Below are positions 10,843-21,133 of a DNA stretch of 64,000 bases, one piece after another (within the stretch, counting starts at the first letter, position 1; each line of letters opens with the position of its first letter). The notes under the pieces were generated by a model that was not told the DNA's origin, ran no database searches, and worked only from the letters and a program-made list of their open reading frames with translations. Origin of the DNA: Alloascoidea africana. Its lineage: Eukaryota; Ascomycota; Alloascoideomycetes; Alloascoideales; Alloascoideaceae. The DNA lies in contig JAKTTT010000011.1 in assembly GCA_030581615.1 (NCBI GenBank), positions 395,127-459,126 on the forward strand, given 5' to 3'. Made by a program: the position numbers and the translations under genes.

Positions 10843-12258
10843 ATGTCTTCTAACAACCTCGGTATGTCCACAGTTCATTGTGAAAAATCAAGAAAAAATA
10901 TTATTTTTTAGTGAATGAAAATTGTATCGTTATCTGTATATCTATCTGACTGACCGCCCGCTGCTGGAGCAGACCAATTCCAAGAAGTCAATGAGTCAGT
11001 GACAAATCCATATGGGGCAAACCCCCAGGACTATCTCTCGAACGTTGGCAAATTCCAGATTATCGAGTCCACACTACGAGAGGGTGAGCAATTCGCAAAT
11101 GCCTTTTTCGATACAGAGACCAAAATCAAGATTGCAAAAGCGCTCGATGAGTTTGGTGTCGATTACATTGAGTTGACGAGTCCTGTTGCATCTGAACAAT
11201 CCAGGAGCGACTGCGAAGCGATCTGTAAACTTGGATTGAAGGCCAAGATTTTGACCCATATCCGATGCCACATGGATGACGCAAAGATTGCTGTTGAAAC
11301 GGGTGTTGATGGTGTTGACGTTGTCATTGGAACTTCGCAATTTTTGCGGACCTATTCCCATGGGAAGGACATGTCTTACATCACCAAGAGCGCTATTGAG
11401 GTAATTGAGTTTGTCAAGAGCAAGGGCATCGAGATCCGGTTTTCCTCGGAGGACTCGTTCCGAAGCGACCTGGTCGACCTTCTAAACATCTACAAGACCG
11501 TGGACAAGATTGGAGTGAACCGAGTGGGTATCGCGGATACGGTTGGGTGTGCAAACCCGCGCCAGGTCTATGAACTCGTCCGCACTTTAAAGTCGGTTGT
11601 TTCTTGTGATATCGAGTGCCATTTCCATAACGATACGGGCTGCGCAATCGCCAATGCTTACTGCGCTCTAGAGGCTGGTGCAAAACTGATCGATGTCTCG
11701 GTGCTCGGTATCGGAGAGAGAAACGGTATCACGTCTTTGAACGGGCTCATCTCCCGGATGATTGCAGCGGATCGTGAATACGTTACCAAAAAATACAACC
11801 TCAAAAAGCTCCGAGATTTGGAGATTTTGGTCGCACAGGCTGTTCAAGTCAACATTCCTTTTAACAATCCCATCACTGGATTTTGTGCATTCACTCACAA
11901 GGCCGGCATACATGCCAAAGCAATTCTTGCGAATCCTTCCACTTACGAGATTTTGAAACCCGAGGACTTTGGCCTCACACGATACATCCATTTTGCGAAC
12001 CGACTTACCGGTTGGAACGCAATCAAATCGCGTGTTGAACAGTTGAACCTTGCTCTAACGGATGACCAAGTCAAGGAAGTCACAGTCAAGATCAAGAAGC
12101 TTGGAGACATTAGACCATTGAACATTGACGATGTGGATTCTATTATTGAGGATTACCATGCAGAAGTAAATACTCCAATGGTCAAGCCCATTGTAAAGGC
12201 CAAAGTGGATGAGACTCTGGATATTAACGAGCCCGCTACAAAGAAGCAAAAGACATGA
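10843..12258 (+). CDS. LYS20: Homocitrate synthase (lysine biosynthesis), one intron
   Basis: Catalyses condensation of acetyl-CoA with 2-oxoglutarate to homocitrate, the first and lysine-inhibited step of the alpha-aminoadipate pathway. Exon 1 is 10843-10861 (MSSNNL plus one base), intron 10862-10972 has donor GTATGT, and exon 2 is 10973-12258; total 434 residues. The DRE-TIM barrel starts with the signature STLREGEQF. Metal-binding [10 protein letters not shown] and VLGIGERNG are present, and the LeuA-dimer-like region carries [19 protein letters not shown]. The N-terminal [14 protein letters not shown] matches S. cerevisiae Lys20/Lys21, so the name is by homology to either paralogue. The tail EPATKKQKT resembles the nuclear-type C-terminus of the yeast enzymes. 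Confidence 0.95.
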
Positions 12259-12459: not shown

Positions 12460-13325
12460 TTAAACAACGTCCGGTTGTTCATAATCTCCTTGATGTTGCA
12501 TACTATCTGGTTTCTCATCTCCAAGAGCAGGCACAAAGTTTATAATCACATAAATAACGCCAATTCCAGCAATGACGGATCCAACTATGATTCTAAGAAT
12601 GTGGTCATGTAGGATTATGAGACCGATGAGGGTGTAGACTAAAAAAAGCCGTTAATGGGACATTTCCAGTTTAGAGTATAAATTAGATCCTTTATCATCC
12701 AAAAAAGGAAATGAAATATCAAGGAATAAACATACAGACACCTCTCCCGACAAATGAATATAGGAAGGAAGCATAGGGATATACTAGAGCAGATGGGTTT
12801 TTGAATTCGAGACCCAGTATAGCGATGCCGAAAAGAATCACAAATATTGCAATCACAGCCTATTATTAAATTAAACAATTGGTTAGGACCACAAACCTGC
12901 CCTCTTTTTGGATTTGTTTGTTTGTTTGTTTTTGTTGCTTTTGTTCTTCTAGTAATTAGAGGAGCATACAGATTGACTTTGGGTGAGTTAGGTTAGTATA
13001 ATCCGGGGCAAGTCATTACCGATTCCTTAGATTCAAGCCTCCCAAAAAAAACAGCAAGTAGTTGTTTTGAAATTCTTACAAAGACACGGGAAAGAATTGA
13101 GAAATTCCTCCGGCAATCTATATCAAAAATTGTGAGGATTGTGTTAGTCTTTTATTGGTTCCTGCTCAATTAACAGGTAGTCCTATCCATCACAGCCACC
13201 CCACACACACACTTGAATGGCAAGAGGTGAAGGGGAAATTGCCACCCAAAAATCAACAAACATACAGAAAGACCACCAACTCCGAGGTTTACAATTCGGA
13301 AGATATCTGCTTTTGCAAATGCCAT
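12460..13325 (-). CDS. TVP15: Golgi membrane protein Tvp15 (COPI-associated family), five exons including a 7-nt microexon
   Basis: Small tetraspan protein of late-Golgi (Tlg2-containing) vesicles. Exons on the minus strand are 13325-13266, 13117-13080, 12976-12970, 12859-12736 and 12638-12460; together 408 nt, 135 residues. Family landmarks are IFRIVNLGVG, GGISQFFP, YASFLYSFVGRGVFY and LIILHDHILR. Exon 3 is only TCAATCT. Joined to the TT ending exon 2 it gives Phe-Gln-Ser, matching the FxMQS-like position I recall in filamentous-fungal Tvp15; skipping it produces an immediate stop. Introns are 97-148 nt with GTATGT/GTAAGA/GTATGC donors; ACTAAC, TACTAACC and CCTAACC branch sites precede exons 2-4. 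The gene converges on LYS20 with 201 nt between stops. Confidence 0.87.
12970..12976 (-). other. TVP15: 7-nt microexon of TVP15
   Basis: Minus-strand TCAATCT is flanked by an acceptor AAAG, preceded by ATACTAACC, and a donor GTATGC. It restores frame between a phase-2 exon end (TT) and a phase-0 exon start (GCT). Confidence 0.8.
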
Positions 13326-14123
13326 TGTGAATGCGAGCGTACTGTTCTTTCTCGATGAAATAAATGGGACGACCGGAGTGGGAGGAGAAGAGCTGCGGAT
13401 CTGAGATGATGCTGCCGATAGCCCATACATCCATACGCCCGATGAAAAGGAGAGTCTATGAAAGCATTTTACAGGTTTTACAAAGTTTTAATATGAGCTC
13501 TCGTTACTTTCATTAGATTTGGGGTCATCATGTCATATATGTATCGTAGTTTGTCCTCTTTCTTTTCCAAAAAATATTGGAAACAGACAATTATTGGTCT
13601 TTTTTTTTTTCTTTTTGGGTCCATCATATACATTACTGTATGGCCCCCATCACCATGGTGTATCATCATCATCATCATCATCATCTTTCAATATCTCAAA
13701 CAAAAATCAAATCACCAGCAAATGAGCAATAACAATAATAATAAAAAAAGAATATGGGGATGGTTCAAAAGCATGTACAACACTTGTATATCTATAATTC
13801 TAAATGAAGACAAGAGACGTAATAATAGATGAATGAAAAATGTGGGAAATTGTAGCAAAGAAAGCAAGTCAAACCAGACTATAGATAGAAAAGCATTGTA
13901 CTCATAATATCATTTTTTTGGGGATTTTTAATCTCGTTGAAAGAAAAAAAAATAAAGGAAAAATTAATAGAAAAAATAGGAATCAGAAGGACGAGAGAGA
14001 ACGCAAAATGAGCGAATACCCACGCATGCAAATGAAAAGTATACCGTTGTGGCGATTTGGCGATTTGGGAAAATTCAAATTTCAAAACAACAGAAAAAAG
14101 AAATGAGAAAAAAGTGACTATTT
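13326..14123. other. Intergenic TVP15 5' / PFK26 3'
   Basis: AT-rich stretch with low-complexity tracts, including an (ATC)n run at 13662-13685 and several A- and T-runs. No gene was recognised. Confidence 0.5.
13662..13685 (+). repeat. (ATC)n microsatellite
   Basis: Eight perfect ATC units in non-coding DNA. Confidence 0.85.
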
Positions 14124-16427
14124 CTAGTCCTCTCTGGATGACAAATTCAGCTTTTGTAGTCTCCTTGTCAATGAGTCAGACAAATTCATCTGTTTGGCCC
14201 TAGAATCATACGAGTCAGGGGTTCCCGAATTGGTAGAAGGGTCTGTGCTCGTATTACTGCTCTGGCCTTGACCCTGACAGTATTGCAACTGCGAAGAAGT
14301 TCGGGTTTGTTGTGTTAGCGCTGCTGTCAACAAACTACTACAACCCGTGAAAGAACTATTTCGAAGCGAACCCTTGCGCATGAAACTGGGCAAACAAAGA
14401 TTTGCTTGTGATGGAGCAGCAGAGGGCAATTTGATATAGCTGAAATGGGGTCCCACGGGCTCGCTTGGTTGAACGGCTTTGCTAAATCCTTTTGATCCTG
14501 GGAAATCACTAGGGACGTGGTAAAACCAATCCGACTCTTCGTCATACTTGTACAAAGCCCAATCTACACCATACGGTTTTGGTTCGAGCACAAACACCGA
14601 ATGAAGAGGAACAACAAGATCCGTGATGGCAAACCTATCCAGGTTCATAAAATAGGAGAGCAAAACACGAGTGACCACCTGGTGGCCAATGAGAAGCACA
14701 CTGTCTTCCATTCTTTCCAACTCGACAATGACTGGCTTCAATCTGTTGATAACGTCAAGATAAGACTCTCCCCCAATGCCCGGGTATCTGTATCGTAGTT
14801 TATCGTGGAGCCGAGCGTAATACTCATTCGGATACTGTTCTCTGACTTCTTCATATGTCATGCCTTCGCATATTCCAGCGCTCAGCTCGTTTAGCATTCT
14901 CATTTCTTTGACAAAGTACCTCTCATCATCAAAGAACTGGGCAGTTTCAACACTTCTGTTCAACATGCTTGTCCAAACGCAAAAATTTCCTTCTTCAGGT
15001 TCGGACAAGGGAGTCGCGGGATGAGATCCGTTTCTAGACAAGATTCTCTTGCTTTTAGCGGCAAAATGCTCAAGTTGGCGTTGCCTGAAAGCCGCACGTT
15101 TGAAATCCATAAAGCTGGCAAGGGCACGAGAGTATTTGGTCCCCTTTGCAGTCAGATGTGCATCGCCGCCGATTCTTCCTTCCTCATTGTCGGTACTTTC
15201 ACCATGTCGGGCAATCCAGATTTGCCTCTCTGCCAAGTTAAAGTTGAACAAGAAATAGACCGCTTGACCCGATAAAAATCCATGGATGTTGTAGGATACG
15301 ACTTTACGGCCGACATTAATCATCTTGACATACTGGAATGTGTCATCCTCTTCTGCTTCTGCATCATCAATCGTTTCATAGGCCTTTTCATAGTTGCGCA
15401 TACGACCAATGAAATCTTGTAATGCGACTTCAGAATCCATATCTTTGTAATCTGGGCCAGAAAGCTTTAAGCGGATGTTTTCTTCAATTATGCTGGACTT
15501 TGTGCAAATGGATTCCAAAAATAAAACTTTTAATTCGCCATTGCTGCGCTCCTTTATCTTGTCCAAAACGCGCTTTCTTCTTTTTTTAGTCGTGTTGGTA
15601 GCGTCAAAGATGCCGACGGATCCAGGCCCATCGAGCACGTAGTCTAGCAACTCATCAAGCGTGTCCATGGCCCAGGTGTCTCGCAAAGCCGCAGCCTCCG
15701 GGTTATCGGGGTTGAAAAATTTGGCATCATGCTCGCCCTCTGCTTTGTTTTCTTGCTCGTGTTCGCACTCGAGTACTCTGGGGTCTTTAGTTAGAGGAGA
15801 AATGTCGTCCGAAAGTGGGCCATGTGCTGGACCCAGCGAGGTTTTAGCCTTTCGGCGAGTGTTTCCCACGTTGAAGATTCTGCAGTCGTGCTGAAGCCAG
15901 TTTAGGTATCTTGTCAACTTTTTTGTAATGTAGGACTTTCCTCTCGCAGGAAGGCCAACCATGACAATGACGAGCTTCGAGCCGACGTCAGTGGATGAGA
16001 TAGTGCCATTTGGACTCGTTTTGCTCCTGGTCAGCCCCGGCACGTCGAGGGTAGTTGGGCGTCTAGAAGAGGACTTTGGCGCAAAGGAGTCCGAGTTGAC
16101 AGAAGTTACCGAGGTCGAGGAGTAATCCGACGTGACTGAGAGTGGTTTATGATAGTTTGTACTGTTTATGACGATGTTCATGGCGCTTGGAGCCTCGTAG
16201 CCATCACCAGACTCACCGGTGGCAGTAGGAGCAGTGACATATGGAATGGAGCTGTGTGAGTCGCCACTTGGCGCGGGCTGGTATGCCTCCGGCGCCCTCG
16301 CCGTGGGTGTATCGTATCGCGGACGCATCTGAAAAGAGCTGGCTGGAACCTGTGGATCTGGAGAAGGAGCAGAGGAAAGAGCAGAAAGAGGGGACTGTCC
16401 AGGCTTTATATTTCGCTGGATGGTCAT
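14124..16427 (-). CDS. PFK26: 6-phosphofructo-2-kinase/fructose-2,6-bisphosphatase (Pfk26-type)
   Basis: Sets the level of fructose 2,6-bisphosphate, the activator of phosphofructokinase and inhibitor of gluconeogenesis. From the first in-frame ATG (16427) it has 767 residues. A long Ser/Pro-rich N-terminus leads to RRPTTLDVPGLTRSKTSP, matching S. cerevisiae Pfk26 just before the kinase. The P-loop GLPARGKS lies near residue 155, with FNVGNTRR after it. The bisphosphatase domain has RHGESTDN near 405, ELSAGICEGMTYEE, and GHQVVTR near 581. The His, Glu and His expected of an active bisphosphatase are therefore all present. A Ser/Thr-rich tail follows. A 40-residue charged insert after NTRRKA is unusual. 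The gene lies 155 nt downstream of the tropomyosin stop, on the same strand. Confidence 0.93.
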   Translation of the reverse strand: MTIQRNIKPGQSPLSALSSAPSPDPQVPASSFQMRPRYDTPTARAPEAYQPAPSGDSHSSIPYVTAPTATGESGDGYEAPSAMNIVINSTNYHKPLSVTSDYSSTSVTSVNSDSFAPKSSSRRPTTLDVPGLTRSKTSPNGTISSTDVGSKLVIVMVGLPARGKSYITKKLTRYLNWLQHDCRIFNVGNTRRKAKTSLGPAHGPLSDDISPLTKDPRVLECEHEQENKAEGEHDAKFFNPDNPEAAALRDTWAMDTLDELLDYVLDGPGSVGIFDATNTTKKRRKRVLDKIKERSNGELKVLFLESICTKSSIIEENIRLKLSGPDYKDMDSEVALQDFIGRMRNYEKAYETIDDAEAEEDDTFQYVKMINVGRKVVSYNIHGFLSGQAVYFLFNFNLAERQIWIARHGESTDNEEGRIGGDAHLTAKGTKYSRALASFMDFKRAAFRQRQLEHFAAKSKRILSRNGSHPATPLSEPEEGNFCVWTSMLNRSVETAQFFDDERYFVKEMRMLNELSAGICEGMTYEEVREQYPNEYYARLHDKLRYRYPGIGGESYLDVINRLKPVIVELERMEDSVLLIGHQVVTRVLLSYFMNLDRFAITDLVVPLHSVFVLEPKPYGVDWALYKYDEESDWFYHVPSDFPGSKGFSKAVQPSEPVGPHFSYIKLPSAAPSQANLCLPSFMRKGSLRNSSFTGCSSLLTAALTQQTRTSSQLQYCQGQGQSSNTSTDPSTNSGTPDSYDSRAKQMNLSDSLTRRLQKLNLSSRED

Positions 16428-16582
16428 ATTTCGAGATGAGATGGCGGCCAGGCACGGCGCCCGATCGGGCAGTACGGGCACGTGAGCGGTTCGCGGGTGT
16501 ACGGATTATTCGGGCACTAGCACTAGCTCTAACTAACAGGTCAATTCGTCCAGATCAGGCATCTCGGACACAATGCTCAGCA

Positions 16583-16954
16583 TCAGATCGCCTCCAGCTG
16601 CTGCGAAATCTCGTCCAGCTCGGCCTTGGCCTTCGCATACTTCTCGTTGAGCTCCTCAAACTTCTTTTCCCACTCGTCCCGCTCCCCTTCAACGGACGTC
16701 ACCTTCTTCTCCAGCTGTTCCGCCTTGACGTCGGTCTCCCTGAGTTGCTGCGTGGTCTCTTTCAGAGCCTTGTCAGACTGCTCCAATTCGTCCTCCAAAA
16801 CCTCGTTTTTCCGTCGTAGCACCTCGAGTTCCTGGTCCTTGGACGCCTGTTCGTTCTCCAGGTCCTTGACTCTGGTATTTGCCTCGTCTGCCTTCTCCTG
16901 GGCGGCCTCGGCGTCAAGCTTTAAAGCGTTGAGTTTTTCCCTTAATCTATCCAT
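16583..16954 (-). CDS. TPM: Tropomyosin, unusually short (123 residues)
   Basis: Coiled-coil actin-cable protein. The N-terminus MDRLREKLNALKLDAEAAQEK and C-terminus DEWEKKFEELNEKYAKAKAE are canonical for fungal tropomyosins, and the reading frame is uninterrupted from ATG to stop. The length is only 123 residues. S. cerevisiae Tpm2 and S. pombe Cdc8 are 161 and Tpm1 is 199, as far as I recall. Aligned by eye to Tpm2, residues 1-57 match its first 57 and residues 58-123 match its last 66, so exactly 38 residues of the middle are missing. That equals the Tpm1/Tpm2 length step and would leave three actin-binding periods. No splice signals suggest a missing exon. Confidence 0.93.
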   Translation of the reverse strand: MDRLREKLNALKLDAEAAQEKADEANTRVKDLENEQASKDQELEVLRRKNEVLEDELEQSDKALKETTQQLRETDVKAEQLEKKVTSVEGERDEWEKKFEELNEKYAKAKAELDEISQQLEAI

Positions 16955-17851: not shown

Positions 17852-20800
17852 TTAAAATGTAAATAGTCCAGTTCTCTTCTTGCCAAAAGGATAAACCGCA
17901 ATGGCAGCAGAAAAGAGGCCCACAGAAATGCCAATACTAACCTCTATCATTGTAATTCCAAAGCTGACTCCCGAATAATTGTTGTTGGATGAAGAACTGG
18001 TTGAATTTGTAGTGTTTTTATGTGCAACGATCAAATTCGCATTCTCAATCCCAGAGAGTAAACTTCCTTGAGATGCAATTCCTCCTGGAACCTGCACAAA
18101 TATCGCAGGTAGCATGGCACCAAACGCCAATCCTCGGCCAATACGTGAATAAACATTACCCAGTATCCCAATGATAAAAGCGCCAATTGCAGCAGTGAAT
18201 TCGGTAGATTGAGAAAAGTGAAGTCCGGAAAAGTAGGTGACAACGTAGCCCGCACCAGAAATCCCCACCATTACAGGAAGCTGAGACCATTTCGCCTGGT
18301 TCACCAATGCAAGTCCGATTGTAAACATTGGCACAAATAAAAATCTAAACCAGGGGCTAATCGGTTCAGGACAGGTTGTTTCCGAAGTCGCATTCTTATC
18401 AATCCATCCATACAAAGCGGCTCCAAGAGTTATTCCAAATCCAAGAAACAAAGAGTAGATAATCGCATAAAACATTCGAACAGCTCCTGCAACAATATTT
18501 CGAGATTGTAATTCCAAAGAACCACATAGAATTGTATACCCTGGTAAAATCAGTGCAAGACTGCCTTGAACCAACCCGGAGAAACAGAAAGTATTGTGGT
18601 CTTTCCCCGCGGATCCAATCGCTCTACCAATAAAACTCACAACGATCGATGCTGAGACCTCAAACACGTTGGAATACAAAGAGGATCTCGGAGACACAAT
18701 AAATTGCAGAAACCCTACACAAGCACCGAGGCAAAAACAGATAGGCAGGTCTTTCCACCCAGCTTTGAAAGCAAATGGTGCCACCATTGCACTTGAAAAC
18801 CCGGCAATGAGAATACATACCCATGGCTGGAACGAGGGCTTTTTTGATAACAGGTCGTCAATCTTGGTAGAGGCTTCTTCCACGCCCATTCGGTCATGAA
18901 CCACATGTTTGTAGATGGTGTGGACGTCATACAGTTTGCTCAGATTCACTCCCTGATTGCACTTGACAAGGTGCATTTCGGAAGTCCTCGTCGAGGCATC
19001 ACCAAAGGATACAATCATACAGCCTGGGATGTATAGAAACTGGCCATCAACCTCCAGTACTCTGGCAGTCATCACCATGTATTCTTCCAGTCTATGCGTA
19101 GGGGCTCCGTAAAGCATCAAAGCGCGGCACATCCTTAAAATAAATCTCTGTCTTTGGAGAATATCTGCAATGTGCACGGTGATTCTCGCTTCGGCTTCCA
19201 TTCTCCGTTTCTTGGATAGAATTATGCCTCCAGAAGATCGTTTGGTAGGTTTCGGTCTTTTGGTCTCGAATTTTGGAATGGTTGAGTTCCTACTCTCATC
19301 GTAAAGATGCCCGTTTGCAGTTCGTAAAGAAGACTGGACCAGATTCGCTACGCTACCGTTACCACCACCCCCAACACCAGGATAATTGTCTAGATTGGAG
19401 GACGACATGTTTTTGAGTTTTTTAAATTTTAGCAAATCGAGGGAATTGCGTGCAGAGTGAACAGGACTCATTCTGCCCTGTTTGGGAGTTGTGGTTGCGC
19501 TTGAGTCTTCAAACAACGTTGTAGAACTTTTACCAGCAGATGGATTTTGATAAAGCTTTAACAAGCTGCTCAAAACGCCCGCTCTCACAAAAGACGGAGC
19601 TTTTATCATTTTGTCCTGGTCTTCTTCATCTATTCCATCTCCTCCCATGGGGTCCATTGACTCAAAAATGTCGCCCTCATCGCGAAGATAGAAATCGGGA
19701 TTCGGGACCGCAAACATTCTGTCAAGACTGTTTCTTCTACTGTTTGGGCCAGAGTCGGTATTGCCAACTGAAGCAGTTGGTTTATGGATCGCATGCGCTT
19801 TCACCAGCCCCTCTGCTTCGTTCTTGTGGGTTTCTTCCTTGTTTTTGAGCGAGCTACCATCATCACCATCTTTCAAATGTTGTCTACCACTGTCGTTTGA
19901 TTTTCGGAAAAACCCTGCAAGCGTTTCTCCCAGCGTATGGGACCTTGTGATCTTTCTTCTTTTGTCAATATCACTGTCCTGATCGCTATTGTCTTTCGCG
20001 GTCGTATTGCTACTACCGCTGCTCCCTTTGAACTGAGCAGGTTCATCTTCACCGCTATTTCTCTCTTTTTTGGCGGCCACTTCTCGGAGATCCATCATCG
20101 GTATGTCCTCTCCGCGACCATTACCCGATAATCTGGCGTACTCCGTATTGAAACGGGCTTGCTTTTCCAGATCGTCTTCTTGTTCGGATCGGTACTCAAT
20201 TGCACCTGGCGCCAACCCTCCGGCTCCAACATTCCCAGCAGACAAAAGCTGTCCGAATAGAGTGTCGTTCGCAGTGCCTGTAGCCGCGGCCGCAGCAGCA
20301 GCCAAGTTTGACGATGAAGACGTGGAGCGGAAATGCGAAAACGCACCTGGGTTCTGTGCTTCTGCTTCCTCATTCTGGCGGTCAAAGCTATTGGAGCCAG
20401 AAGCACGGGGCTCATCTCGGTGGTCGTAGTCATCTTCAAAGTTGACTGCTTTTGTCGATGGCACTTTTTGATGACGGTGGAAGTAATCCTCTTGGGGTCG
20501 CTGACTTTGCTCGGTTGTAACCGGCGGGCTAGAAGGGTTTCGAGCGGCTCTTAGGCTTGAGGTGTAAAAATCGCTTGGAACTCTGCTTCGGTGGGTCTGT
20601 TTGTGAGCATTACTATTACTATTGCTACTGGCAGCGGTAGCTTGGTGGAATCTACTGGAAGAGCTCGAGTCCGGGTCCGATTCATAATCAATAGCCGCCG
20701 ATTCGGATTGTTCATCATCTGAATCATCTGAAGAAACCGTTGTTGCATTTTCTAGATCTAGACCGTCGGAGATGTCCTCCTTATCATGTAGCAAAAGCTC

Positions 20801-21133
20801 ATCTTCATCGGTTCTGTTCTTTTTCGGTTTCGGAGAGTTTACTGCAAACGAGGGCAATACAAAGCTCTGAGAGGAATAAGTATGTGGAAGTGGCGGCCTT
20901 GGGGGATATTGACTTCCACTGGTCTCATCATTGGTATTCTCATCGTCTTGGTTATAATCGCTATCATCCGAATATTGATCGCTAACGGTTTTACTCTTAT
21001 CTTTTCCCTTTCCTTTTCCTTTTCCTTTCCCTTTTTTGCCCTTCCCGTTATGGCGCTCGGGTTTGGCTTGACCTTTAGAAGAGGACGTTATTGTTGAGTG
21101 ACTTGAAGAAGATTTGAACGGCCGTGGAACCAT
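17852..21133 (-). CDS. PRM10: Prm10-like ThrE/DUF1212-family membrane protein
   Basis: Fungal relative of the ThrE threonine/serine exporter family. The S. cerevisiae orthologue Prm10 is pheromone-regulated and its transport substrate is unknown. The 1093-residue protein has a roughly 650-residue hydrophilic N-terminus rich in Ser, Asp/Glu and Lys, including a KGKGKGKGKGKDKSK run near residues 31-50. The conserved part starts at RQRFILRMCRALMLYGAPTHRLEEYM. Its first half carries the cytosolic catalytic-like domain (GCMIVSFGDASTRTSEMHLV), followed by about ten membrane segments, including PGGIASQGSLLSG in the last third. No intron. The long disordered N-terminus is typical of fungal members, though large here. 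Confidence 0.88.
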   Translation of the reverse strand: MVPRPFKSSSSHSTITSSSKGQAKPERHNGKGKKGKGKGKGKGKDKSKTVSDQYSDDSDYNQDDENTNDETSGSQYPPRPPLPHTYSSQSFVLPSFAVNSPKPKKNRTDEDELLLHDKEDISDGLDLENATTVSSDDSDDEQSESAAIDYESDPDSSSSSRFHQATAASSNSNSNAHKQTHRSRVPSDFYTSSLRAARNPSSPPVTTEQSQRPQEDYFHRHQKVPSTKAVNFEDDYDHRDEPRASGSNSFDRQNEEAEAQNPGAFSHFRSTSSSSNLAAAAAAATGTANDTLFGQLLSAGNVGAGGLAPGAIEYRSEQEDDLEKQARFNTEYARLSGNGRGEDIPMMDLREVAAKKERNSGEDEPAQFKGSSGSSNTTAKDNSDQDSDIDKRRKITRSHTLGETLAGFFRKSNDSGRQHLKDGDDGSSLKNKEETHKNEAEGLVKAHAIHKPTASVGNTDSGPNSRRNSLDRMFAVPNPDFYLRDEGDIFESMDPMGGDGIDEEDQDKMIKAPSFVRAGVLSSLLKLYQNPSAGKSSTTLFEDSSATTTPKQGRMSPVHSARNSLDLLKFKKLKNMSSSNLDNYPGVGGGGNGSVANLVQSSLRTANGHLYDESRNSTIPKFETKRPKPTKRSSGGIILSKKRRMEAEARITVHIADILQRQRFILRMCRALMLYGAPTHRLEEYMVMTARVLEVDGQFLYIPGCMIVSFGDASTRTSEMHLVKCNQGVNLSKLYDVHTIYKHVVHDRMGVEEASTKIDDLLSKKPSFQPWVCILIAGFSSAMVAPFAFKAGWKDLPICFCLGACVGFLQFIVSPRSSLYSNVFEVSASIVVSFIGRAIGSAGKDHNTFCFSGLVQGSLALILPGYTILCGSLELQSRNIVAGAVRMFYAIIYSLFLGFGITLGAALYGWIDKNATSETTCPEPISPWFRFLFVPMFTIGLALVNQAKWSQLPVMVGISGAGYVVTYFSGLHFSQSTEFTAAIGAFIIGILGNVYSRIGRGLAFGAMLPAIFVQVPGGIASQGSLLSGIENANLIVAHKNTTNSTSSSSNNNYSGVSFGITMIEVSIGISVGLFSAAIAVYPFGKKRTGLFTF

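What the first reader, a model, noticed from the sequence alone, without database searches (positions are those of the whole stretch)
12970..12976. 7-nt coding microexon in the TVP15 gene
Sequence: between a phase-2 exon end (TT, 13080) and a phase-0 exon start (GCT, 12859), skipping directly gives an immediate stop. A 7-nt segment TCAATCT has its own branch site (ATACTAACC), acceptor and GTATGC donor and restores the frame. It adds Phe-Gln-Ser exactly where Tvp15 homologues have a similar tripeptide before the VI.I/LFG helix. Coding exons this short are very rare in budding yeasts and are missed by gene predictors.
Basis: partly seen in the sequence, partly recalled or inferred. Interest (0 to 1): 0.75.

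Follow-up and report, generated by a model that had tools for sequence, protein, structure and literature searches.

The report
Seven-base coding exon in TVP15
A yeast gene for a small Golgi membrane protein appears to contain a coding exon only seven bases long, and a distantly related second copy of the gene in the same genome carries the same seven bases at the same place, so the tiny exon is probably old and conserved, although no RNA data were available to see it spliced.

Summary
On the minus strand, TVP15 (135 aa, Pfam COPI_assoc, E=3e-29) needs the 7-nt exon TCAATCT at 12976-12970; skipping it or keeping either flanking intron gives a premature stop. It encodes Phe-Gln-Ser. In the 120 best-listed homologues, 120 of 120 have three ungapped residues there and 70 have FQS. 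Of 150 enumerated splice paths the microexon path scores best against a Tvp15 profile.

New, independent evidence: the only other COPI_assoc gene found in this genome (contig C16, 40% protein identity) has the identical microexon and identical donor GTATGC at the homologous place. CTAAC-N4-30-AG-TCAATCT-GTATG occurs exactly twice in 23.18 Mb, in these two genes (reversed control 0). So the microexon very probably predates the duplication.

The kind is not unprecedented: a cDNA-confirmed 4-nt internal exon is reported in the budding yeast Yarrowia lipolytica (PMC2911113, passages). Constitutive inclusion by intron definition, one intron at a time, is the likeliest mechanism; no RNA data were available. 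Splice-site motifs alone are not enriched in this genome; the case rests on homology and the paralogue. Verdict: real, conserved, a new member of a known kind.

The parts
13266..13325 (-). TVP15 exon 1 (60 nt, phase 0 end; MAFAKADIFRIVNLGVGGLS)
   Evidence: homologues start near here
13118..13265 (-). intron 1 (148 nt), donor GTATGT, acceptor ATATAG
   Evidence: sequence read directly; the paralogue model has an intron at the homologous place
13080..13117 (-). exon 2 (38 nt), ends in phase 2 (TT)
12977..13079 (-). intron A (103 nt), donor GTAAGA, branch TACTAAC 12998-12992, first AG after the branch (CCCAAAG)
12970..12976 (-). 7-nt microexon TCAATCT: completes Phe33, encodes Gln34-Ser35
12860..12969 (-). 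intron B (110 nt), donor GTATGC, branch-like TCCTAAC, acceptor AATAG
12736..12859 (-). exon 3 (124 nt), phase 0 start, phase 1 end
12639..12735 (-). intron 4 (97 nt), donor GTATGT, acceptor TTTTAG
   Evidence: same position in the paralogue model
12460..12638 (-). exon 4 (179 nt including the TAA stop)

Best explanation
A constitutive, frame-restoring 7-nt coding microexon in a five-exon TVP15 gene, inherited from before the duplication that gave this genome its two COPI_assoc genes. Each flanking intron (103 and 110 nt) is recognised as its own unit by intron definition; because seven bases cannot hold two spliceosomes, the two introns are removed one after the other. The consensus TACTAAC branch of intron A, made before that of intron B during transcription, commits the microexon's acceptor and so prevents skipping. 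Faulty products (skipping, or keeping either intron) carry early stops and should be removed by nonsense-mediated decay. Shown: sequence, frame, homology, paralogue. Inferred: actual splicing, its order, constitutive use, decay of faulty products.
For: Reading frame and 135-aa product, PF08507 E=3e-29. FQS columns: 120 of 120 homologues ungapped, 70 FQS. Removing FQS lowers the profile score from 148.9 to 135.3 bits, and in the paralogue from 110.5 to 101.2. Best of 150 enumerated paths, next 139.4; in the paralogue best of 876, next 107.6. Identical microexon and donor in the C16 paralogue, L005 1611-1617, which is itself PF08507 E=1.7e-24 and 40% identical. Cassette found twice in the whole genome, control 0. 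Skipping breaks the frame with a stop in both genes. In S. cerevisiae DYN2, a suboptimal first-intron branch point causes skipping of the second exon (Howe 2003 as described in PMC5793784, passage read).
Against: No RNA evidence. The donors GTAAGA and GTATGC are not common: upstream of 41 TACTAAC anchors in the 152 kb held they occur 1 and 0 times against a scaled control of 1.5 each, while GTATGT occurs 9 times against 0 (anchors had to be followed by CAG or TAG, and the loci had been picked by a splice-like pattern). Genome-wide motif pairs do not exceed the reversed-pattern control (GTAAGA..TACTAAC 9 against 52; GTATGC..CTAAC..TAG 54 against 94; but even GTATGT..TACTAAC 22 against 37). The paralogue's second intron has no CTAAC branch. 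No unusual RNA fold aids inclusion (z -0.14 and 0.19). A Mago homologue exists, so an exon junction complex may be present; in human cells that complex represses donors close downstream of a fresh junction (PMC6224609, passages), which would disfavour removing intron A first. Introns A and B of the two genes score slightly above the best of 50 shuffles in a gapped alignment (0.81 against 0.76, 0.67 against 0.66), so some shared flanking sequence is not excluded.
Confidence: 0.94

Rival explanations
1. No microexon: exon 2 uses an earlier donor GTGTCT, eight bases upstream, and joins exon 3 directly, giving a 130-aa protein that lacks V-S-F-Q-S.
For: The frame is open and reaches the C-terminus (130.5 bits).
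Against: 18 bits worse than the microexon product; deletes three residues whose columns are filled in 120 of 120 homologues; GTGTCT is an unlikely donor (established knowledge); leaves the identical cassette in the paralogue unexplained.
Confidence: 0.02
2. The microexon is real but alternatively included, as an on/off switch: skipping yields an unproductive transcript and tunes the Tvp15 level, in the manner of the glucose-dependent Xlr2 microexon of Trichoderma. (A variant of the best explanation, not exclusive of it.)
For: Skipping gives an early stop in both paralogues; length is not a multiple of three; Xlr2 precedent (PMC11121469, passages); the flanking donors are not the common ones.
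Against: No positive sign of regulation was found; intron A has a consensus branch, which favours inclusion; no unusual fold.
Confidence: 0.2
3. A different internal exon (for example GCTTGAATCTAAGGAATCG, 19 nt) is used.
For: An in-frame product of 139 aa exists (139.4 bits).
Against: 9.5 bits worse; its path drops out when a CT[AG]A[CT] branch element is required; donor GTAATG; the paralogue's best path uses TCAATCT.
Confidence: 0.01

Closest known systems
4-nt internal exon of Yarrowia lipolytica YALI0E34170g (PMC2911113; passages read)
   Same: Very short internal exon in a multi-intron gene of a budding yeast.
   Different: 4 nt rather than 7; gene product not given in the passages read; validated there by two cDNAs, ours by homology only; the passages mention no paralogue.
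Xlr2 microexon of Trichoderma (PMC11121469; passages read)
   Same: Fungal microexon absent from the annotated gene model and conserved among relatives.
   Different: Switch-like, dependent on glucose, with two protein isoforms; ours is probably constitutive, and skipping gives a truncated frame.
S. cerevisiae DYN2 second exon (Howe 2003, not held; seen through PMC5793784 passages)
   Same: Internal exon kept in by the branch point of the upstream intron.
   Different: Longer exon (recalled as about 23 nt, from no call).
4-bp constitutive microexon of MPC1 (PMC9929638; search listing and start of abstract only)
   Same: Constitutive, length not a multiple of three.
   Different: Not fungal; its title speaks of exon definitive regions, whereas intron definition is supposed here.

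Membership tests
microexon (internal exon of at most about 30 nt) | length | tested here: met
   7 nt, coordinates 12976-12970
microexon (internal exon of at most about 30 nt) | flanked by GT-AG introns with branch sites | tested here: met
   GTAAGA..TACTAAC..AAG and GTATGC..TCCTAAC..TAG; these donors are not common ones here, and the paralogue's second intron lacks CTAAC
microexon (internal exon of at most about 30 nt) | coding and conserved in homologous protein or gene | tested here: met
   three ungapped residues in 120 of 120 listed homologues, FQS in 70; identical in the paralogue. Whether other species encode it as a separate exon was not testable.
microexon (internal exon of at most about 30 nt) | present in mature mRNA | not testable with these tools
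   no transcript data
Tvp15 / COPI-associated family (PF08507) | match over the curated cut-off | tested here: met
   102.2 bits against a cut-off of 30; paralogue 86.8
Tvp15 / COPI-associated family (PF08507) | Golgi membrane location | not testable with these tools
   inferred from the family name only
switch-like (regulated) microexon | condition-dependent inclusion | not testable with these tools
   no RNA data
zero-length recursive splice site | donor directly at the exon-exon junction | tested here: not met
   seven bases lie between acceptor and donor and are needed for the frame

The most novel reading that the evidence does not exclude
The 15-base cassette AG-TCAATCT-GTATGC is held constant by the splicing machinery itself, not only by the protein: after a duplication old enough that exons 3 and 4 are no more alike than shuffled DNA, the microexon with its three synonymous positions and all six donor bases are unchanged. 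The cassette would be an ancient TVP15 microexon, possibly shared by other early-branching budding yeasts, and a natural test of how an exon shorter than a spliceosome footprint is spliced in a yeast that still has a Mago homologue.
Probability: 0.2. Interest if true: 0.55.

Novelty: new member of a known kind. Interest (0 to 1): 0.42.

Why it matters
It suggests that a 7-nt coding exon can be kept over a long time in two diverged yeast genes, so it is not a one-off oddity or a prediction error. Such exons can break automatic gene models (without it the frame is lost), and yeast genetics would make the order and rules of microexon splicing under intron definition directly testable.

Tried and rejected
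Motif-only evidence: TACTAAC..AG-3..18 nt-GTATG gives 41 matches in the genome against 57 for the reversed control. For 30 of these 41 (those given as loci; the window's own gene, L018, is one of them) I listed acceptors and open frames. One search missed the minus-strand loci by mistake and is superseded, which found the match in 30 of 30. Without homology none of the other 29 can be called a microexon or excluded; the remaining 11 of the 41 were not looked at.

RNA folding as an aid to inclusion: nothing unusual. Solved structures: none for Tvp15 at E <= 0.01. Retained-intron models: excluded by stops (one search read directly). Likeness of the pieces of the two genes in gapped alignments, against 50 shuffles: exon 2 0.66 (shuffled maximum 0.69), intron A 0.81 (0.76), intron B 0.67 (0.66), exon 3 0.62 (0.67), exon 4 0.59 (0.63). 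The introns are thus slightly above shuffles, perhaps through T-rich runs; a shared remnant is not excluded. A Cryptococcus paper (PMC3990503, one passage) only mentions a mapping setting for microexons.

Full report
Gene model. The minus strand of 13325-12460 reads as a five-exon gene: 60, 38, 7, 124 and 179 nt. The 135-residue product matches Pfam COPI_assoc (PF08507) at E=3e-29. A first search gave 6 homologues; the best named ones are a Magnusiomyces paraingens protein (56% identity) and Sporothrix epigloea proteins (58-59%). An upstream in-frame ATG at 13430 would add an N-terminal stretch; homologues start near residue 1 of the model used here, so I kept 13325.

The microexon. Exon 2 ends in phase 2 and exon 3 begins in phase 0. 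Direct joining gives PVSLL-stop. TCAATCT restores the frame and adds F-Q-S. Keeping intron A gives a stop at once (TTG TAA, read); keeping intron B gives a 41-residue product.

Homology test. A profile search scored 1601 proteins at E <= 0.001 and listed the best 120; more distant ones were not seen. I aligned those 120 (P0001-P0121 without P0006, a fragment of 80 aa that does not cover the region). In the three columns 0 of 120 have a gap; 70 are FQS, 24 MSS, the other 26 various; 1 of 120 (P0104) has two extra residues just before them. With a profile from these 120, which leaves the window's gene out, I scored products from GT/AG joins between exons 2 and 3 with introns of at least 40 nt and internal exons of at most 60 nt. 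With the branch element CT[AG]A[CT] required, the microexon path is best of 34 paths (148.9 bits; next 139.0, which also uses TCAATCT). Without that demand it is best of 150 (next 139.4).

Chance. Among 20000 dinucleotide shuffles of the 220-nt stretch, 10 hold AG, any 7-mer coding F-Q-S in frame, and GT; with CTAAC and GTA[TA]G as well, 0. For the paralogue's 166-nt stretch the numbers are 11 and 0. A looser in-frame microexon of up to 28 nt with those signals, whatever it encodes, appears in 85 and 14 of 20000.

Paralogue. A protein search of the same genome (G000, 23.18 Mb, 138 contigs; the window is C11:395127-459126) found a second gene on C16; a search with the Pfam family found only these two loci. 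Its DNA (L005) shows the same plan: exon 2 ends ...GGATT before GTAAGT; then ...CAACTAACATGTACCAG, TCAATCT, GTATGC; then an intron ending ATCTAG before TTCATTTTG. The spliced product has 136 aa, PF08507 E=1.7e-24, 50 of 124 aligned positions identical to TVP15, with FQS aligned to FQS. Without the microexon the frame breaks. With the branch element required, no full-length product came out for this gene, because its second intron has no CT[AG]A[CT] element near the acceptor; without that demand the microexon path is best of 876 (110.5; next 107.6, a narrow lead). Each of the four introns of TVP15 has a counterpart in the paralogue model, which has one more (exon borders). Exons 3 and 4 are no more alike in DNA than shuffled sequence, while both introns are slightly above shuffles, so the duplication looks old, though some shared flanking sequence is not excluded. 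AG-TCAATCT-GTATGC is identical. A search for CTAAC-N4-30-AG-TCAATCT-GTATG in the whole genome gave two matches, these two, and 0 for the reversed control.

Results against. The motif alone is not enriched (41 against 57). The donors GTAAGA and GTATGC are not common upstream of TACTAAC in the 152 kb I held nor above control in the genome; the common donor GTATGT with TACTAAC does not exceed that control either (22 against 37), so the reversed control is a harsh one. RNA folding is ordinary. No transcript was seen.

Mechanism. Seven bases are too few for the acceptor of one intron and the donor of the next to be occupied at once (established knowledge of spliceosome size, not tested), so removal must be sequential. 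Either order keeps the microexon. Skipping needs the donor of intron A to pair with the weaker branch TCCTAAC of intron B. The consensus branch of intron A argues against that, as in DYN2, where a suboptimal first branch point causes skipping (PMC5793784 passages). A Mago homologue is present (PF02792 over cut-off), so an exon junction complex may exist; in human cells it represses donors close to a new junction (PMC6224609 passages). This would favour removing intron B first, or mean that the yeast complex does not act so. The order stays open.

Organism. Unnamed. The homocitrate synthase next door has its best-listed hits among budding-yeast proteins, 91% over 93% to one of [Candida] boidinii, 86% over 95% to one of Lipomyces arxii. 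An early-branching budding yeast is likely, not shown.

Literature. Very short exons in a budding yeast are known: in Y. lipolytica the shortest internal exon is 4 nt, confirmed by two cDNAs (PMC2911113, passages). For fungi in general the paper on Xlr2 says that identification of microexons is relatively limited (PMC11121469, passages). My searches (listings only, some capped) showed no report of this exon; the one TVP15 passage read concerns a protointron of S. cerevisiae TVP15 (PMC6726248). The library holds open-licence papers only, so absence there is weak evidence.

Verdict. The finding is real as far as sequence can show. It is a new member of a known kind, made more interesting by its conservation in an old paralogue.

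Noticed in passing
window 16583-16954 (-): Tropomyosin ORF of only 123 aa (PF00261, E=5.5e-30); the best-matching solved chain (8puz_A) has 161 aa. The difference of 38 residues is about one actin-binding period (recalled), so this may be a three-period tropomyosin. A second match over all 123 residues (84% identity) lies on C25, and two apparently longer ones on C4 and C42.
   Followed up: partly
L005 1280-2156 (G000 C16): Second COPI_assoc gene with the same microexon and one more intron, whose acceptor in my model (CCAAG before TTCCTCCG) is unusual.
   Followed up: yes
G000 C42:174117-174793 (L038-L041): Mago nashi homologue in several pieces, so this yeast may have kept the exon junction complex.
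   Followed up: no
window 14124-16481 (-), 17852-21133 (-), 10999-12258 (+): Neighbours by Pfam: 6-phosphofructo-2-kinase with a histidine phosphatase domain (785 aa), ThrE-like putative threonine/serine exporter (1093 aa), HMGL-like homocitrate synthase (419 aa).
   Followed up: no
L006-L035: Other TACTAAC..AG-short-GTATG places; a few (L014, L016, L019, L020) have a pyrimidine-rich stretch before a TAG and could be further microexons or chance.
   Followed up: partly
outside the window: S. cerevisiae TVP15 (PMC6726248, table passage): A protointron reported in S. cerevisiae TVP15 also has the donor GTATGC. Whether its place matches the microexon's donor here is unknown; it may be coincidence.
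   Followed up: no
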